Positions 47,019 through 64,000 of a stretch of DNA of 64,000 nucleotides are shown one piece after another (position 1 is the stretch's first letter; every line of letters begins with the position of its first letter). Source of the DNA: Burkholderia ambifaria AMMD (GTDB taxonomy: Bacteria; Pseudomonadota; Gammaproteobacteria; Burkholderiales; Burkholderiaceae). The stretch covers positions 1,674,001 to 1,738,000 of the forward strand of contig NC_008390.1 of NCBI RefSeq assembly GCF_000203915.1. Direction: 5' to 3'. The notes beneath the pieces were generated by a model. It saw nothing but the letters and a program-made list of their open reading frames with translations. It had not been told where the DNA came from and did not search any database. The position numbers were made by a program, and so were the translations under genes.

Positions 47019-47085
47019 GGAAAGCGCACCCCATCCGTCCCCCGCGGATCGGGCGTTCGGCGAGCAGCGGGCTCGCCCCTTGCGT

Positions 47086-47287
47086 CGGCCGGTATCCGGG
47101 CTGGCCGCTTGCCAGGCCGCAGCCTTCCCGCCCGCTGAAGGGCAGTGGCATCGCGGGCGGCCTGGGCGCGTGCGGGGAACCGCGACGCGCGGGCGGCGTA
47201 CCGTTGCGGGGACAGCACAGGCCGGGCGGACGTCCGCCTCCTGTTTCCCGTTTAACTGCGCACGCCGGAGGAGCGCGCGCGAGCACC
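47086..47287 (-). promoter_or_regulatory. Cobalamin riboswitch for cobA-cobE-cobO-cobB
   Basis: Reading the minus strand, the consensus blocks appear in order: GTTAAACGGGAAACAGG near the 5' end, the B12-box core CCTGTGCTGTCCCCGCAACGG, GCCACTG, CGGGAAGG, and the closing CAGCCCGGATACCGGCC. This is the adenosylcobalamin riboswitch architecture. It precedes cobA. Confidence 0.92.
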
Positions 47288-47461
47288 GAACGCGGCGCAT
47301 ACGATAGCACAGCGCCCGGGCCGCGCGAACCCGCCGCGCGGTCGCCCGGGGTGGCCCCGGACGTGGCCCCGGGCGCGCTGCCGCGGCCATGCAGGACATC
47401 CCGCGGCGGCCCGTTTCACCTTGACGCTCCCCGCACCGCCGCCTACACTCGCACGCGTTTT

Positions 47462-47692
47462 GGTGCTCGCGCGCGCTCCTCCGGCGCGCGCAGTTAAACG
47501 GGAAACAGGGAGCCTGCCTGCGCCGCAGTCGAGCCAACCTGTGCTGCCCCCGCAACGGTAAGCGAACGCGTCGCGCCCAGCGCGACGCAGCGCCGCTTCG
47601 CCGCATGCCTGCCGCATGCGGACGACCGCCACTGGATGCCGCGCATTCGGGAAGGCGAAGCGGCGTGTTCGTCAGCCCGGATACCGGCCGAA
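47462..47692 (+). promoter_or_regulatory. Cobalamin riboswitch for cobW-cobN-chlID
   Basis: On the plus strand: GTTAAACGGGAAACAGGG, CTGTGCTGCCCCCGCAACGG, CCACTGG, CGGGAAGG and CAGCCCGGATACCGGCC in the canonical order. The first 47 bases match those of the divergent riboswitch at 46 positions. Between the two lie about 174 bases that must hold both promoters. Confidence 0.93.
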
Positions 47693-47897
47693 ACGTTGGG
47701 GTTCAGCGCCGCGGGGAGGCGGCGCATCGTCCACGGCCGCAGCATGCCCGACACCCGAGCGTTTCCCGCTTCCTCCACCGATCCGTCCGCCGCACGCGCG
47801 CCGCGCCGGGCCGGCGCGACGAACGGCAGGCGGCGCGGGCAGGGCCGGCGGCAGCCGTGCCGGCATTGACCATGCCGACCGTTCACAAGGAAGCGTC

Positions 47898-49134: not shown

Positions 49135-52100
49135 ATGCATCTGCTGCGCACCACGCCGGGCGGCTTCGTCGACGATACGCAGGGCGTCGTCCGGATCGAC
49201 CAGCAGCCGGCCGACATCGTGATCCTGAGTTCGGCCGATACGACCTTGTCGCTGCTGGCCAGCGTCGTGCCGAAGCTGCCGGCCGGCTTTCCGAGCGTGC
49301 GGCTCGCGAACGTCACGTTCCTGCGGCAGCCCGCGTCGGTCGATTTCTATGTCGACGACGTGCTGCGTCATGCGAAGACGGTCGTGATCGATCATCTCGG
49401 CGGCGAAGCGTACTGGCCGTACGGGATCGAACAGGCCGTGTCGCTGGCGTCCAAGCGCCGGCAGCAGCTCGCGATGTTCTCGGGCGACCTGCAGGAAGAC
49501 CCGAACCTCGTCGCGAAGAGCACGGTCGCGCCGGCGCTGTGCCGGCTGTGGTGGCGCTACCTGCGCGACGGCGGGATGCACAACGCCGAAGCGCTGCTGC
49601 GCAGCATCGCATTCCATACGCTCGGCTTCGGCGACGAACCCGAGCCGCCGCGCCCGCTGCCGGCCGCCGCGCTGTATCACCCGGCGCGCGACCCGGCGAG
49701 CGTCGACGACTGGCGCGCGCGCTGGACGCCCGGCGCACCCGTGGTCGCGATCCTGTTCTATCGCGCGCACTGGCAGGCCGCGAACACGGCCGTGTTCGAC
49801 GCGCTGGCCGATGCGCTCGTGCGCGAAGGGCTCAATCCGCTGCCGATCGCGGTCACGTCGCTGAAGGACGCGGTGAGCCGCGAGGTCATCACGCAGCTCT
49901 GCGACACGCACGGCGTCGCGCTCGTGCTGAACACCACGGCCTTCGCGGCCGGCGCGATCGATAGCCCCGAGCCCGACATACTCGCCGGCGACGCGCCGGT
50001 GCTGCAGGTGATCCTGTCCGGCGGCAACCGCGACGCGTGGGTGGCCGACAACCAGGGGCTGCACGCGCGCGACATCGCGATGCACATCGCGTTGCCTGAA
50101 GTCGACGGGCGCATCGTCACGCGCGCGGTGAGCTTCAAGGGGCTCGCGTATCGGTGTCCGCACACCGAAGTCGACGTCGTGCGCTACCAGCCGGACGCCG
50201 AACGGATCGCGTTCGTCGCGGCGCTCGCGCGCGGCTGGTGCCGGCTGCGCACGCTCGACAATGCCGACAAGCGCATCGCGCTGATTCTCGCGAACTATCC
50301 GCAAAGCGAAGGGCGGATCGGCAACGGCGTCGGGCTCGACACGCCGGCGTCCGCGCTGCGCGTGCTCGCGGCGCTGCGCGACGCGGGCTATGCGGTAGCC
50401 GACCTGCCGGCCGACGGCGACGCGCTGATCGCGCGGCTCACCGAAGGCGTGACCAACGACCCGGCCGTGCGCGCACTGCGCCCCGCGTTCCAGAGTTTCG
50501 CGCTGGCCGATTACGTCGCGCATTTCGCGCGGCTGCCGGCCGCCGTGCGCGATGCGCTGAACGAGCGCTGGGGGCCGCCCGACGCGGACCCGACGCTGCG
50601 CCAAGGGCGCTTCCCGATCGCCGGCTGGCGCGCGGGCAACGTGTTCGTCGGCATCCAGCCGTCGCGTTCGCGCGGCGAGAACGACTATGCGAGCTACCAC
50701 GACGCGGACCTCGTGCCGCCGCACGCTTACCTCGCGTTCTATTTCTGGCTGCGCGATGCGTTCGGCATCGACGCGGTCATCCACCTCGGCAAGCACGGCA
50801 ACCTCGAATGGCTGCCGGGCAAGAGCGTCGCGCTGTCCGACGCGTGCTGGCCGGACCTGACACTCGGGCCGCTGCCGCATCTGTATCCGTTCATCGTCAA
50901 CGATCCGGGCGAGGGCAGCCAGGCGAAGCGCCGCGCGCAGGCCGTGATCATCGATCACCTGATGCCGCCGCTCACGCGCGCGGAAAACTACGGCCCGCTG
51001 CAGGATCTCGAACGGCAGGTCGACGAATACTACGAAGCGCTGATGGTCGATGCGCGGCGCGCGAGGCTGCTGCGCAAGACGATCCTCGCGACGATCGCCG
51101 AACACCGGCTGCATGACGAGCTGAGCGTGTCGCCGCCGCGCGACGCCGGCGACGAGGACGCGCTGCTCACGCGCGTCGACGCCTGGCTGTGCGAATTGAA
51201 GGAAGCACAGATTCGCGACGGGCTGCACGTGTTCGGCGCGTCGCCGCTCGACCGCCAGCGGCGCGATACGCTGCTCGCGCTCGCACGCTTTCCGGTCGGC
51301 GACGGCAAGGGCGAACGCGCGGGGCTGATCGCCGCGCTCGCGCGCGATCTCGCGCTCGGCGACGATTTCGATCCGCTCGCGGCCGACTGGGCTGCGCCGT
51401 GGACGGGCCCGCGGCCGGCCGTTCTGCAGGCGCTCGACGCGTCGCCGTGGCGCCATGCGGGTGACACGCGCGAGCGGCTCGAGCGGCTCGCGCAGCAGTG
51501 GCTCGATGGACTGTGCCGTGCGAATGTCGGCGGCGATGCCGGCATCGATGCGACGCCGCCGGGTGCATGGCCGCACACGCTCGCCGTGCTCGAACGCGTG
51601 CGCGCGACGCTGCTGCCCGCGCTCGACGCGTGCGGCGGCGAGGAACTGCGCCAGCTGCTGCGCGGGCTCGACGGCCGCTTCGTGCCGCCGGGGCCGAGCG
51701 GCTCGCCGTCGCGCGGCCGTCCCGACGTGCTGCCGACGGGCCGCAACTTCTATTCGGTCGATACGCGCGCGGTGCCGACGCAGGCCGCGTGGTCGCTCGG
51801 GCTGAAATCCGCGCAGCAGCTGATCGAACGCCATCTGCAGGATCACGGCGACTATCCGCGCGCGATCGGGCTGTCGGTCTGGGGCACGGCCACGATGCGC
51901 ACCGGCGGCGACGATATCGCGCAGGCCTTCGCGCTCATCGGCGTGCGGCCGAAATGGGCGCACGGCAGTCATCGCGTGACCGACTTCGAGATCCTGCCGA
52001 TCGAGATCTTCGACCGGCCGCGCATCGACGTGACGCTGCGCGTGTCGGGCTTCTTCCGCGACGCGTTTCCGAACCTGATGCACCTGTTCGACGCGGCCGT

Positions 52101-52947
52101 GCAGGCCGTCGCCGCGCTCGACGAGCCCGAGGCGCTGAACCCGATCCGCGCGCGCATCGAGCGCGAACGCGCGACCTGGATCGAGCGGGGCGTGGCGCCC
52201 GACGAAGCGCGACGCCGCGCCGGCTGGCGCGTGTTCGGCGCGCGGCCGGGCAGCTACGGTGCGGGCCTGCAGGACATGATCGACCAGCGCCGCTGGCAGA
52301 CCGACGCCGATCTCGCCGCCGCGTATCGCCAGTGGGGCGGCCATGCGTACGCGCAGAACAGCGCGGGCGACGCGGCCCCCGACGTGTTCGGCGAGCGGCT
52401 CGCGGCGATCGACGTCGTCGTGCAGAACCAGGACAGCCGCGAACACGACATCCTCGACTCGAACGACTACTACCAGTTCCAGGGCGGGATGACGGCGGCC
52501 GTGCGCCACCTGTCCGGCCAGCAGCCGAGCATCTACCACGGCGACCATGCGAACCCGGTCGCGCCGAAGATGCGCACGCTGCGCGAGGAGATCGCGCGCG
52601 TGATCCGCTCACGCGTCGTCAACCCGAAATGGCTCGACGGCGTGAAGCGTCACGGCTACAAGGGCGCGGCCGAAATGGCCGCGACCGTCGACTACCTGTA
52701 CGGCTATGACGCGACCGCCCGCGTGCTGTCGGACCATCAGTACGCGCTCGTCGCCGACGCGTACCTGTTCGACGACGACACGCGTGCGTTCCTCGAACGA
52801 CACAACCCGAAGGCGCTGCACGGCATCTGCGAACGCTTTGTCGAAGCGATGCAGCGCGGGCTGTGGCAGCAGCCGGGCGACTATCGCGAGCGGATCGAAG
52901 CGGTCTGGCTCGACAGCGAACAACTCCAGGAAGGAGGACGGCGATGA
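49135..52947 (+). CDS. cobN: Cobaltochelatase large subunit CobN
   Basis: A 1270-aa CobN/BchH-family protein that binds hydrogenobyrinate a,c-diamide and inserts cobalt. Family blocks include AVIIDHLMPPLTRAENYG, VIHLGKHGNLEWLPGKS, RNFYSVDTRAVPTQAAW and the C-terminal EHDILDSNDYYQFQGGM. It works with AAA+ and VWA subunits; here these are supplied by the chlI/chlD pair directly downstream rather than by CobS/CobT. The stop overlaps the chlI ATG. Confidence 0.96.
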   Translation: MHLLRTTPGGFVDDTQGVVRIDQQPADIVILSSADTTLSLLASVVPKLPAGFPSVRLANVTFLRQPASVDFYVDDVLRHAKTVVIDHLGGEAYWPYGIEQAVSLASKRRQQLAMFSGDLQEDPNLVAKSTVAPALCRLWWRYLRDGGMHNAEALLRSIAFHTLGFGDEPEPPRPLPAAALYHPARDPASVDDWRARWTPGAPVVAILFYRAHWQAANTAVFDALADALVREGLNPLPIAVTSLKDAVSREVITQLCDTHGVALVLNTTAFAAGAIDSPEPDILAGDAPVLQVILSGGNRDAWVADNQGLHARDIAMHIALPEVDGRIVTRAVSFKGLAYRCPHTEVDVVRYQPDAERIAFVAALARGWCRLRTLDNADKRIALILANYPQSEGRIGNGVGLDTPASALRVLAALRDAGYAVADLPADGDALIARLTEGVTNDPAVRALRPAFQSFALADYVAHFARLPAAVRDALNERWGPPDADPTLRQGRFPIAGWRAGNVFVGIQPSRSRGENDYASYHDADLVPPHAYLAFYFWLRDAFGIDAVIHLGKHGNLEWLPGKSVALSDACWPDLTLGPLPHLYPFIVNDPGEGSQAKRRAQAVIIDHLMPPLTRAENYGPLQDLERQVDEYYEALMVDARRARLLRKTILATIAEHRLHDELSVSPPRDAGDEDALLTRVDAWLCELKEAQIRDGLHVFGASPLDRQRRDTLLALARFPVGDGKGERAGLIAALARDLALGDDFDPLAADWAAPWTGPRPAVLQALDASPWRHAGDTRERLERLAQQWLDGLCRANVGGDAGIDATPPGAWPHTLAVLERVRATLLPALDACGGEELRQLLRGLDGRFVPPGPSGSPSRGRPDVLPTGRNFYSVDTRAVPTQAAWSLGLKSAQQLIERHLQDHGDYPRAIGLSVWGTATMRTGGDDIAQAFALIGVRPKWAHGSHRVTDFEILPIEIFDRPRIDVTLRVSGFFRDAFPNLMHLFDAAVQAVAALDEPEALNPIRARIERERATWIERGVAPDEARRRAGWRVFGARPGSYGAGLQDMIDQRRWQTDADLAAAYRQWGGHAYAQNSAGDAAPDVFGERLAAIDVVVQNQDSREHDILDSNDYYQFQGGMTAAVRHLSGQQPSIYHGDHANPVAPKMRTLREEIARVIRSRVVNPKWLDGVKRHGYKGAAEMAATVDYLYGYDATARVLSDHQYALVADAYLFDDDTRAFLERHNPKALHGICERFVEAMQRGLWQQPGDYRERIEAVWLDSEQLQEGGRR

Positions 52948-54038
52948 CCGATCCGACGACGCCCCGCGCACGCGCGGTGTTCCCGTTCGCGGCACTGGTC
53001 GCGCAGCAACCGTTGCAGCAGGCGCTGCTGCTCGCCGCGATCGACCCGTCGCTCGGCGGCGTGCTCGTCAGCGGGCCGCGCGGCACCGCGAAATCGACCG
53101 CCGCGCGCGCGCTGGCGGAATTGCTGCCCGAAGGCGAATTCGTCACGCTGCCGCTGTCGGCGAGCGACGAGCAGGTCACCGGCACGCTCGATCTCGCCCA
53201 TGCGCTCGCCGCCAACGGCGTGCGCTTCCGGCCGGGCCTGCTCGCCCGCGCGCATCGCGGCGTGCTGTACGTCGATGAGGTGAACCTGCTCGCCGACGGG
53301 CTCGTCGATACGCTGCTCGACGTCGCCGCGAGCGGCGTGAACGTGGTCGAGCGCGATGGCGTGTCGCACGCGCACGATGCGCGCTTCGTGTTGGTCGGCA
53401 CGATGAATCCCGAGGAAGGCGAGCTGCGCCCGCAACTGCTCGACCGCTTCGGGCTGATGGTCGAGCTCGAGAACTGCTTCGACGCCGCGCAGCGCGAACG
53501 GATCGTGAAGGCGCGCCTCGCGTTCGATCTCGATCCGGATGCGTTTCGTGCGCGTCACGCAAGCGCGCAGCGAGAACTTCGCGACGGGATTCATGCGGCG
53601 CGGGCCCGGCTGTCGGCGCTCGATTTCGACGATGCGGTTCACGCCCGCGTGAGCGCGCTGTGCATCGACGCGGCCGTCGACGGCCTGCGCGCCGACCTCG
53701 TGATGCTGCGCGCCGCGCGCGCGCTCGCGGCGCTGGAGCAGGCCGACGCGGTGACGGTGTCGCATGTCGAACGCGTGGCCGACGCGGTGCTGCGGCATCG
53801 GCGTCATGCGGGCGCGCCGCCGTCGTCGGGCGCGCCGCCATCGCGCGGCGACGGCGACCGCGACCGCGACCGCGACGAGCGTTCGCCACCGGACACACGC
53901 CGGCAACCCGACGATCAACCGGGCGCGGCACGCAACGATGCGACGGCATCGCAAGGCGAGTGGGGCTACTTGCCACCCGAACCGGCCGGCTTGCGCGATG
54001 TGAAAAGCGTGGTGCCGCTGCCGCTAAAAAAACGCTGA
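52944..54038 (+). CDS. chlI: AAA+ chelatase subunit (ChlI/BchI-like); zero-frame product
   Basis: A 364-aa AAA+ ATPase of the magnesium/cobalt chelatase class. Walker A is GPRGTAKST at about 33-41, Walker B VLYVDEVNLL near 107, followed by the sensor region VLVGTMNPEEGELRPQLLDRFG and a helical C-terminal lid (to about 295). A charged linker (DGDRDRDRDER) leads to the end at LKKR. An excellent AAGGAGG precedes ATG 52944. The last codons CTA AAA AAA CGC TGA form a -1 slippery site; ribosomes that slip continue into the VWA domain, so this gene probably yields both the small subunit and the ChlD-like subunit. Confidence 0.93.
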   Translation: MTDPTTPRARAVFPFAALVAQQPLQQALLLAAIDPSLGGVLVSGPRGTAKSTAARALAELLPEGEFVTLPLSASDEQVTGTLDLAHALAANGVRFRPGLLARAHRGVLYVDEVNLLADGLVDTLLDVAASGVNVVERDGVSHAHDARFVLVGTMNPEEGELRPQLLDRFGLMVELENCFDAAQRERIVKARLAFDLDPDAFRARHASAQRELRDGIHAARARLSALDFDDAVHARVSALCIDAAVDGLRADLVMLRAARALAALEQADAVTVSHVERVADAVLRHRRHAGAPPSSGAPPSRGDGDRDRDRDERSPPDTRRQPDDQPGAARNDATASQGEWGYLPPEPAGLRDVKSVVPLPLKKR

Positions 54039-54086
54039 GCCATCGAGCGGACGCCGCCGCGAACGCCGTTCGCGGTCCTCGATGGC
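54026..54086 (+). other. Predicted -1 programmed ribosomal frameshift signal (chlI to chlD)
   Basis: The heptamer A AAA AAA (54026-54032) lies in the zero frame as CTA AAA AAA. Six bases later a stem begins: GCCATCGAG (54039-54047) pairs with CTCGATGGC (54078-54086). Nested inside it, CCGCGAAC (54057-54064) pairs with GTTCGCGG (54068-54075). The zero-frame stop TGA (54036-54038) falls in the spacer. This is the textbook layout of slippery site, short spacer and stem-loop. Confidence 0.82.
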
Positions 54087-54715
54087 AGCCAGGCGCCGCC
54101 GCGCGCGTGCCGGGGACGGCACGCGCCGGCACGGCCGTGGCGTGGCCGGCGACGCTCGCCGCGAAGCGCGGCGGCCCGCTGCACGCCGGCCATCTGCGTT
54201 TTCGCAAACAGGCCGGCGCCCCGCGCGCGCTCCATTGCTTCGTGCTCGACTGTTCGGCGTCGATGTTGTCGCACGAACGGCTCGCGCTCGCAAAAGGGTT
54301 GATCGTCGCGTACTTCGACCAGGCCGCACGCGACCGCGTGGAAACCGCGCTGATCTGCTTCGGCGGCAACGGCGCCGCGCGGCGTTTCGGCCCGGCCGTG
54401 CCGCGCTGGTGGAACGCGCGCTGGCTCGAGCCGGTGGACGGCGGCGGCGGCACGCCGCTCGCGGACGGCATCGCGGCCGCCGCGCAACTGCTCGCGCGCG
54501 CGGCACGGCGTACGCCGGACCAGCAGCGCTGGCTGTGGGTGCTGTCCGACGGACGCACGCGCGAAACGGCACCGAAACCGGCGGCCGCCGATCACGTCGT
54601 GTTCGTCGATTTCGATGACGCGGCCGTGCGGATCGGGCAGGGCAGGCGGCTCGCCGACGCATGGGGCGCGCAATGGACGACGGCCGCGTCGCTGTGCCCC
54701 GGGGTGACCGGCTGA
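54032..54715 (+). CDS. chlD: VWA-domain chelatase part (ChlD-like), reached by -1 frameshift
   Basis: In the -1 frame from 54032 the protein continues for 227 residues with an Arg/Ala-rich linker and a von Willebrand A domain. The metal site is visible: DxSxS as LDCSASM, the Thr loop GGGGTPLADG, and the Asp in VLSDGRT. The frame has no ATG before the DxSxS motif and no Shine-Dalgarno sequence ahead of its few GTG codons (54107, 54137), so independent initiation would be poor or would remove the metal site. Frameshifting gives a 590-aa AAA+/linker/VWA fusion, the architecture of ChlD. Partner subunits are CobN and the short AAA+ form. Confidence 0.85.
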   Translation, partial: TLSHRADAAANAVRGPRWQPGAAARVPGTARAGTAVAWPATLAAKRGGPLHAGHLRFRKQAGAPRALHCFVLDCSASMLSHERLALAKGLIVAYFDQAARDRVETALICFGGNGAARRFGPAVPRWWNARWLEPVDGGGGTPLADGIAAAAQLLARAARRTPDQQRWLWVLSDGRTRETAPKPAAADHVVFVDFDDAAVRIGQGRRLADAWGAQWTTAASLCPGVTG

Positions 54716-62306: not shown

Positions 62307-62340
62307 AGACTTCACCACTTCACGACGTCACGACTTCACC
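62307..62340. repeat. Short octamer-like repeats at the chitinase 3' end
   Basis: Units of ACTTCACC/ACTTCACG/ACGTCACG/ACTTCACC run through the chitinase stop codon. Slippage could alter the last residues. Confidence 0.4.
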
Positions 62341-63683
62341 CACACGCCGCCGGCGCTCGGGTTGTCGCCTTGCGTCCACCATTTCGCGCAGTATTTCGCG
62401 CCCTGATACATCACGCACGTGCCGCCCTGGTACGCGGTCGTTGCCGACCACGTCGCCGTGCCGCCGCCGATCGCTTTCCACACGCTCGCCTGGCCCGGTA
62501 CGTCGCCCTGCGTCCACCATTGCGCCTGGTACGTCGTGCCCTGATAGGTGACCGTCGCGCCGGCCGTATAGACCTGGCCGGCCGACCAGGGCGCGCCGGG
62601 CTGCGGCGTGCCGCCGTTCGAGCCGCCGCCGTAGTTCGGATCCTGCGTGACGCCCGCGCCCCACTTGCCGTCGAGCTTGCGGAAGATCGACGCGAACGCG
62701 TACGGCTGCTGCGCGATGCCCGAGCAAGTCGGCGACACATACGCGCCGTTGTTCGGGCACGGCTGGTCGCGGCCGACCGACCAGTTGCCGAAGAACCCGT
62801 AACCGTTGTTGAGCGCCGTATTCAGCACGCTCTGCGCATTGGCGAGCGTGAAGGTTTCGCCCTGCACGTCGTTCATCCCGATCATCGGCGTGACCCCGAC
62901 CATCTGCCAGAGTTGCGCGCCGGTCTTCGGCTGGCCGGCCGACTTGAACGCCGTGTCGAGCTGCGCGTAGAGCGCCTGCGCCGCGCTGATCGCCGCCGCG
63001 CCCATGTCGATGTTCGCGGGGCCGTAGTCCATCGTCATCAGGTTCACCGCGTCGAACGCGACCTTGTTCGCGATGGCCGCGGTCACGACGTTCACGCCAT
63101 CCTGCGTGAGCCCGGTCGGCATCGTCGGCAGCGTCAGCGTGACGTGCAGCGGCCGGCCTTTCGCCGCGTAGTCGGACTGCAGCTGCGCAACCGCCTGGAA
63201 GTTGCGGGCGACGGCGGCGCTGTCCTGCTGCGATGCGCCCTCGATGTCGAAGTCGACATGCGTGAGGCCGTAGGTGTCGATCACGGTTTGATAGGCAGTC
63301 TTCAGCGCGGGGACGGTCGAGCACGCCTGCATCAGCGGCGTGCCGTTCGCGCCGCCGAACGAGACCGCGATCTCGCCGCCTTTCGCGCGATAGCTCGCGA
63401 TCGACGTCGACAGCGACGCGAGCAGATCGCCGCTCGCACCGTTGCCGATCGGCTGCACGCCGCCCCAGGACGGCGCACAGCCGTTGCCCGCCGTCACGAA
63501 CGCGAGCGTGAACTGCTGGATGCCTTGCTGGACGCCGATCCGGTCGACGAGCGGCGTCGGGTAGAGCGTCACGTCGACGAACGGCGCATAGACGCCGGCG
63601 CCATGGGACACGCTCGCGGCGGCGAGCAGGCAGCCCGCGACGAGGGCGCGCGGGTTGAATCGCGACAACACGGTGTTGTTCAT
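62328..63683 (-). CDS. Secreted GH18 chitinase with two C-terminal chitin-binding modules
   Basis: A 451-aa exported chitinase. The signal peptide is about 1-28 (ending SHG). The GH18 domain spans about 30-335 with the catalytic DxDxE as VDFDIEG (Asp144, Asp146, Glu148) and the later MTMDYGPANIDMG. Two CBM5/12 modules follow (about 355-400 and 405-450), each with the WSAGQVYTAGATVTYQG and WWTQGD type of aromatic pattern. The second has a CVMYQGAKYC cysteine pair. It hydrolyses chitin outside the cell. Start ATG 63683 has GGAG at the right distance; no neighbour is functionally linked. Confidence 0.94.
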   Translation of the reverse strand: MNNTVLSRFNPRALVAGCLLAAASVSHGAGVYAPFVDVTLYPTPLVDRIGVQQGIQQFTLAFVTAGNGCAPSWGGVQPIGNGASGDLLASLSTSIASYRAKGGEIAVSFGGANGTPLMQACSTVPALKTAYQTVIDTYGLTHVDFDIEGASQQDSAAVARNFQAVAQLQSDYAAKGRPLHVTLTLPTMPTGLTQDGVNVVTAAIANKVAFDAVNLMTMDYGPANIDMGAAAISAAQALYAQLDTAFKSAGQPKTGAQLWQMVGVTPMIGMNDVQGETFTLANAQSVLNTALNNGYGFFGNWSVGRDQPCPNNGAYVSPTCSGIAQQPYAFASIFRKLDGKWGAGVTQDPNYGGGSNGGTPQPGAPWSAGQVYTAGATVTYQGTTYQAQWWTQGDVPGQASVWKAIGGGTATWSATTAYQGGTCVMYQGAKYCAKWWTQGDNPSAGGVWVKS

Positions 63684-63814
63684 TGTTTTCTCCAAGTGGA
63701 AGAGGGATACGCTGGCCCGCGTATCGCCGCCGGTCGGGCGGCTGCACATGCCCGCCCGGCGGCATGCACATCTTGAAGGATTAGCTCTGAACAATGAACG
63801 GTTGTGCGTTTTTT

Positions 63815-63842
63815 TTATTATTGCGCTGTGTGTAAGTAACAA
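63815..63842 (-). promoter_or_regulatory. Candidate chitinase promoter
   Basis: On the minus strand TTGTTA (63842-63837), a 16-nt spacer and TAATAA (63820-63815), in a short AT-rich patch about 130 bases before the start codon. The rest of 63684-64000 shows no gene. Confidence 0.4.
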
Positions 63843-64000
63843 TCTTGCCGATTCGAGCGAATATTGAAACGTAATGCGGGCGATTTGTCCGCTTGGTCGT
63901 GCGATGAAGTGCAAGCGCCGGACGCTCGATACCGTGCGCCACGGTGAGCGGCCGATGCGTGCGTGGGTGAGTCGCTCCGGCACCGGCAACGTCGGCCGGC

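What the first reader, a model, noticed from the sequence alone, without database searches (positions are those of the whole stretch)
52944..54715. One gene, two chelatase subunits: -1 frameshift fusing ChlI-type AAA+ to a VWA domain
The AAA+ frame ends CTA AAA AAA CGC TGA. The heptamer A AAA AAA, a 6-nt spacer that contains the stop codon, and a nested stem-loop (9 bp outside, 8 bp inside, 54039-54086) form a complete -1 frameshift signal. The -1 frame runs straight into the VWA domain with DCSAS. That frame has no ATG before the metal site and no Shine-Dalgarno sequence. Output would be a 364-aa small subunit and a 590-aa ChlD-like subunit in a fixed ratio for CobN. Frameshifting in chlD genes that serve cobalt chelatase has been proposed before; this locus is a strong case with an A7 slip site, and transcript slippage on A7 is an alternative route.
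Basis: partly seen in the sequence, partly recalled or inferred. Interest (0 to 1): 0.85.

Follow-up and report, generated by a model that had tools for sequence, protein, structure and literature searches.

The report
Known frameshift in cobalt chelatase gene
A vitamin B12 gene in a Burkholderia genome carries a conserved ribosome slip signal that should make a short and a long chelatase protein from one message; it is a real and well-conserved case of a mechanism already published for this gene family.

Summary
The AAA+ frame (52944-54038) ends CTA AAA AAA CGC TGA, a nested stem (9 bp outside, 8 bp inside) starts right after the stop, and the VWA domain continues in the -1 frame. Of 200 sampled Burkholderiaceae genomes (this one included) 98 matched the AAA+ part; in 89 of the 98 the VWA part lies in the -1 frame, and all 89 have A_AAA_AAR at the same place. 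The stem shows compensatory changes and folds better than its surroundings. Programmed -1 ribosomal frameshifting is the best reading. It is not new: a 2013 paper names Burkholderia in the same frameshift cluster and reports 10% slippage for an A7 member in E. coli; a 2022 paper assigns the two products to cobalt chelatase. A caution on function: eight family genomes have an in-frame AAA+-VWA fusion beside CobN and no second ChlI-like match, and three of eleven frameshift genomes checked also hold strong CobS/CobT-like matches. That the frameshift is needed to supply a small subunit is inferred, not shown.

The parts
52944..54038 (+). 0-frame AAA+ ORF (ChlI-like small subunit, 364 aa)
   Evidence: Pfam Mg_chelatase, AAA_lid_2; TIGR02442 positions 1-53 and 88-350 of 641
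54026..54032 (+). slippery heptamer A_AAA_AAA
   Evidence: A_AAA_AAR at the same place in 89 of 89 Burkholderiaceae -1 loci, the window's own included
54033..54038 (+). 6-nt spacer CGC TGA holding the 0-frame stop
   Evidence: three bases then TGA in 88 of 89, GCCTAG in 1 of 89
54039..54086 (+). stem-loop, presumed stimulator: outer 9 bp 54039-54047/54078-54086, inner 8 bp
   Evidence: compensatory changes; z-scores; uninterrupted stem of 8 bp or more in 86 of 89 family loci
54032..54715 (+). -1 frame continuing into the VWA (MIDAS) domain, DCSAS at 54248-54262
   Evidence: Pfam VWA_2; TIGR02442 positions 457-586
49135..52947 (+). CobN, large cobaltochelatase subunit, just upstream (overlaps the AAA+ start by 4 nt)
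   Evidence: TIGR02257 1585 bits, cut-off 822; the only CobN match in the genome
47605..49128 (+). CobW ORF (true start probably downstream; the CobW match begins at residue 149)
   Evidence: TIGR02475 482 bits, cut-off 332
47444..47706 (+). cobalamin riboswitch ahead of the cobW-cobN-chlD genes
   Evidence: RF00174 52.4 bits, gathering 31.5

Best explanation
This is an fs-chlD gene. Ribosomes that stay in the AAA+ frame stop at TGA 54036 and make a 364-aa ChlI-like protein. A fraction slip back one base on A_AAA_AAA, helped by the stem-loop that starts right after the stop, and continue into the VWA domain to make a ChlD-like protein of about 590 aa. Both products most likely form the AAA+ motor of the aerobic cobalt chelatase with CobN, encoded directly upstream behind a cobalamin riboswitch. 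Shown here: the sequence signal and its strict conservation. Inferred: that slippage occurs in this organism, its rate, and that both products are needed (I put the two-subunit role at about 0.7).
For: Site: 89 of 89 -1 loci among 98 family matches have A_AAA_AAR exactly 10 nt before the stop. The codon before AAA AAR codes for 8 different amino acids, yet all 89 end in A, against 8.1% third-base A upstream in the same ORFs. Among 105 distinct loci from unnamed and named genomes, Burkholderia to Pseudomonas, 98 are -1: 96 have the heptamer at -10, L070 has it three bases earlier, and L067 was first scanned at a wrong stop and has it at its true end. Stem: at least 9 bp starting within 3 nt of the stop in 77 of 97 loci versus 277 of 4656 control positions; outer helix 93.2% paired with 5 of 9 pairs changed on both sides, whole structure 81.0% paired versus 23.9-48.3% when slid. 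Mean fold z -2.66 versus 0.12. The two pieces match consecutive parts of one model, TIGR02442, and relatives with both parts in one frame exist: 6 distinct loci and 8 family genomes. The genome has one CobN match, no CobS or CobT match and no second ChlI-type match. CobN lies upstream on the same strand in 73 of 80 named loci. Published reporter data for A7, A9 and A11 members of this cluster: 10, 40 and 63% in E. coli.
Against: No expression or peptide data here. The single-sequence fold is modest. In one search two of the five measures were less decisive: number of pairs with change on both sides reached by 56 of 500 shuffles, number of pair types by 18 of 500; the structure was also taken from the window itself, which favours it over slid versions; the loci are related. 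RNAalifold found no consensus pairs on two alignments and a weak partial stem on a third; unequal loop lengths and truncated rows are a likely but untested cause. In 26 of 89 loci an ATG does occur in the -1 frame before the metal site. On function: eight in-frame fused family genomes show no second ChlI-type match; six in-frame fused named loci have no CobN within 5 kb upstream; three of eleven frameshift genomes checked also carry strong CobS/CobT-like matches.
Confidence: 0.94

Rival explanations
1. The VWA protein is made by independent or coupled re-initiation from a GTG/TTG in the -1 frame, around or after termination at TGA 54036.
For: Three GTG/TTG codons lie between the heptamer and DCSAS in the window, and 86 of 89 family loci have some ATG/GTG/TTG there.
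Against: No ATG in 63 of 89; a Shine-Dalgarno-like string of 5 bases or more before a candidate start in 2 of 89, of 4 bases in 12 more. The -1 frame is open back through the heptamer in 97 of the 98 distinct -1 loci, L067 not being judged because it was scanned at a wrong stop; re-initiation does not require this. It does not explain the heptamer.
Confidence: 0.03
2. RNA polymerase slips on the A-run, giving mRNAs that read in frame (it could also act beside ribosomal slippage).
For: A homopolymer run exists; A8 in L027 and L141, A9 in L070.
Against: 34 of 98 distinct loci use A6G. Exact codon phase, the stop three bases on, and the conserved downstream stem fit ribosomal slippage. That runs this short slip little in transcription is recalled, not tested.
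Confidence: 0.03
3. A sequencing error or a pseudogene.
For: Homopolymers are error-prone (recalled).
Against: The same frame relation and site in 89 of 89 Burkholderiaceae -1 loci and in Pseudomonas and other genera.
Confidence: 0.005

Closest known systems
fs-chlD / 'magnesium chelatase' programmed -1 frameshift cluster (Antonov et al. 2013, PMC3711429, passages seen; Atkins et al. 2016, PMC5009743, passages seen; Kuznetsov et al. 2022, PMC9227772, parts 1-3 of 4 read; Antonov 2020, 10.1093/molbev/msaa081, not held, seen only as a reference)
   Same: Same gene, same A_AAA_AAR site, -1 shift, downstream structure, link to cobalt chelatase; Burkholderia named as a member genus in 2013
   Different: Nothing essential; the family-wide count and the stem covariation in Burkholderiaceae were computed here
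dnaX frameshift of E. coli (recalled)
   Same: A-rich heptamer plus downstream stem making two AAA+ subunits of one motor from one gene
   Different: There the 0-frame product is the long one; here it is the short one. No Shine-Dalgarno-like stimulator was found in this window
In-frame TIGR02442-type fused cobaltochelatase subunit
   Same: Same AAA+ then VWA order, beside CobN in the eight Burkholderiaceae cases
   Different: One open frame and no shared slip site in the linker

Membership tests
fs-chlD programmed -1 frameshift genes | ChlI-like AAA+ ORF followed by a VWA part in the -1 frame | tested here: met
fs-chlD programmed -1 frameshift genes | A_AAA_AAR slip site near the end of the first ORF | tested here: met
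fs-chlD programmed -1 frameshift genes | Downstream stimulatory RNA structure | tested here: met
   Structure supported; window alone modest; RNAalifold consensus failed or weak. That it stimulates was not testable
fs-chlD programmed -1 frameshift genes | Homologues in which the two parts are fused in one frame | tested here: met
   6 of 105 distinct loci and 8 of 98 family matches
fs-chlD programmed -1 frameshift genes | Measured frameshift product | not testable with these tools
   Needs a reporter or mass spectrometry
CobN plus ChlI/ChlD-type aerobic cobaltochelatase | CobN present and adjacent, no other small or medium subunit gene | tested here: met
CobN plus ChlI/ChlD-type aerobic cobaltochelatase | Aerobic B12 route present (CobG as the one marker tested) | tested here: met
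   TIGR02435 259.5 bits, cut-off 234.8, about 3.3 kb beyond the window end
CobN plus ChlI/ChlD-type aerobic cobaltochelatase | Both short and long products required for activity | tested here: inconclusive
   Indirect genome evidence points both ways

The most novel reading that the evidence does not exclude
The separate small subunit may be dispensable in this enzyme family. Eight Burkholderiaceae genomes have CobN beside one in-frame AAA+-VWA protein and no second ChlI-like match at E <= 1e-15. The frameshift may then mainly set the amount of the long, metal-site-bearing protein, or tie assembly to translation, rather than provide an essential second subunit.
Probability: 0.2. Interest if true: 0.5.

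Novelty: already known. Interest (0 to 1): 0.22.

Why it matters
It shows, with near-total conservation across a family, that one vitamin B12 gene should yield two motor subunits through ribosome slippage. Annotation that splits it into an AAA+ gene and a separate VWA gene (as the 2013 paper reports for RefSeq) describes it wrongly. The in-frame relatives give a natural comparison for asking whether the short product is needed at all.

Tried and rejected
Mirror-image site: I looked in 14 in-frame fused ORFs (from the start of the match onward) and one ChlI-only ORF for a slip site with a nearby -1 stop that would make the short form. Scattered heptamer-type matches occur, but none is shared in the linker. 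Shine-Dalgarno-like stimulator upstream of the heptamer: absent in the window; a match of 4 bases or more in 20 of 89 family loci and in 10 of 35 of the named set L071-L112, versus about 7-8% of control stretches, so lineage-specific at most. Rfam shows no family at the stem (one sub-threshold hit elsewhere). RNAalifold gave no consensus pairs (ungapped) or a weak partial stem (-4.3 kcal/mol). Rows set aside: L067 from the stem count (its AAA+ scan met an early stop; its true end has the site); L062 has the site and stem, but its -1 frame breaks after about 65 codons and no VWA match was found. Searches used 80 distinct rows of the 89, cut at 61 nt, so longer loops are truncated; one search repeats the stem scan on all 89, with a longer span for the weak ones. 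One search was an alignment with wrongly guessed coordinates and was not used. One line (L070) printed the wrong sequence through a script slip; redone.

Full report
What is there. The AAA+ ORF 52944-54038 (364 aa) ends CTA AAA AAA CGC TGA. The -1 frame is open through this point to 54715 and holds a VWA domain with DCSAS. The first piece matches TIGR02442 positions 1-53 and 88-350, the second 457-586, of 641, so they are consecutive parts of one known protein type. The stem 54039-54047/54078-54086 with its inner 8-bp helix begins directly after the stop. The A7 is the only + strand run of seven or more A's in the window.

Where it is. The genome is 7.5 Mb in 4 contigs. Among the 80 named loci kept the closest are Burkholderia sp. 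Bp9143, B. anthina and B. territorii (91-93% identity in the AAA+ part); the last two belong to the B. cepacia complex. The order is CobW, CobN, fs-chlD on the + strand, with a cobalamin riboswitch at 47444-47706. A second riboswitch on the - strand (47070-47306) overlaps the first part of an ORF for a uroporphyrinogen-III methyltransferase, whose match begins only at residue 138. The genome has one CobN match, no CobS or CobT match, and no second ChlI-type match at E <= 1e-15. Another Mg_chelatase-family gene elsewhere (310 bits) matches TIGR02442 only at 24 bits; I take it for a YifB-type gene, untested. The CobG marker of the aerobic route is present about 3.3 kb beyond the window end.

Conservation. 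Of 200 sampled genomes of the family, the window's own included, 98 matched the AAA+ part at E <= 1e-40. I took all 98 places. In 89 the VWA part lies in the -1 frame, and all 89 have A_AAA_AAR ten bases before the stop: 87 A7 and 2 A6G. The other nine are eight single ORFs of 556-654 codons counted from the start of the match, and one ChlI-type gene. In the tblastn step four of the eight gave no match to the window's VWA piece (those of the L177 row and of one of the eight were weak, E 0.013 and 0.005), but Pfam finds AAA_lid_2, Mg_chelatase and VWA_2 in all eight, and TIGR02442 aligns along each. Three same-genus genomes with less similar genes (G083, G126, G181; L154, L168, L165) also keep the site. 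With the named loci and the 30 there are 105 distinct loci: 98 in the -1 frame, 6 fused in one frame and 1 (L062) without a VWA match. The codon before AAA AAR varies among eight amino acids but always ends in A, against 8.1% third-base A upstream in the same ORFs, so selection acts on the bases and not only on the protein. The loci are related, so these counts are not independent trials.

Structure. A stem of 9 bp or more starts within 3 nt of the stop in 77 of 97 loci, versus 277 of 4656 control positions; on the family set alone 76 of 89, with 86 of 89 at 8 bp or more and none under 6. On 80 distinct rows the outer helix is 93.2% paired with five of nine pairs changed on both sides; the whole structure is 81.0% paired versus 23.9-48.3% when slid. 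Cells paired, cells changed on both sides and the covariation score were reached by 0 of 500 shuffles, but the number of pairs changed on both sides by 56 and the number of pair types by 18. The outer stem appears in the own minimum-energy fold of 81 of 84 distinct family sequences and 32 of 35 from the named set L071-L112. Mean z is -2.66 and -2.87 against 0.12 and -0.20 for control stretches. Against this, the window's own z is only -1.60, and RNAalifold gave nothing or a weak partial stem.

Rivals. Independent starts: no ATG before the metal site in 63 of 89, and a Shine-Dalgarno-like string of at least 5 bases in 2 of 89. Transcript slippage: 34 of 98 loci have only six A's followed by G.

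What is known. PMC3711429 (passages) reports a 23-gene magnesium chelatase -1 frameshift cluster from six genera that include Burkholderia, with 10, 40 and 63% slippage for A7, A9 and A11 cassettes in E. coli; whether the A7 case was the Burkholderia one I could not see. PMC5009743 (passages) describes A_AAA_AAR in this gene as under strong purifying selection and notes strong potential for structure. PMC9227772 (parts 1-3 of 4) describes fs-chlD genes as yielding small and medium cobalt chelatase subunits. Antonov 2020 is not held. The further searches listed no study of this site specific to Burkholderia among the titles shown (20 of 287); the two papers were seen as listings only.

Function, with the results that do not fit neatly. 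Searches compared 20 genomes: the eight in-frame fusions, the one ChlI-type genome and eleven frameshift genomes chosen by me from the 89. Each of the eight fused genomes has one ChlI-type match, next to CobN. Two of the eight (G017, G038) have weak CobS-like (5.3e-36, 2.1e-34) and CobT-like (about 4e-28) matches, as do two frameshift genomes (G020, G015); two of the eight (G053, G038) are only 83% and 70% complete. Three of eleven frameshift genomes (G030, G002, G109) hold strong CobS-like (about 1e-157 or better) and CobT-like (about 1e-72 or better) matches, below the curated cut-offs. The six in-frame fused named loci have no CobN within 5 kb upstream. So need for a separate small subunit is neither shown nor excluded, and I keep the two-subunit role as likely (about 0.7) but inferred.

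Verdict. Real and strongly conserved; an ordinary member of a published class.

Noticed in passing
window 47070-47306 (-) and 47444-47706 (+): Two divergent cobalamin riboswitches (RF00174, 43.6 and 52.4 bits), one in the first part of the uroporphyrinogen-III methyltransferase ORF and one ahead of the cobW-cobN-chlD genes.
   Followed up: partly
L176, L178-L184 (G017, G121, G105, G053, G029, G037, G008, G038): In-frame fused AAA+-VWA cobaltochelatase subunit beside CobN with no second ChlI-type match.
   Followed up: partly
G030, G002, G109: Genomes with the frameshift gene also carry neighbouring CobS-like and CobT-like genes elsewhere, below the curated cut-offs.
   Followed up: partly
L062 around the AAA+ stop: Cupriavidus basilensis OR16: site and stem present but the -1 frame breaks after about 65 codons, with no VWA match; possibly assembly damage or a decayed gene.
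   Followed up: no
L119-L122, L126, L132 and others: A GAGG-type Shine-Dalgarno-like string about 11 nt upstream of the heptamer in one genus (g10), a possible extra stimulator.
   Followed up: partly
window 62331-63989 (-): A chitinase-like ORF with two CBM5/12 stretches and a GH18 match below the curated cut-off.
   Followed up: no
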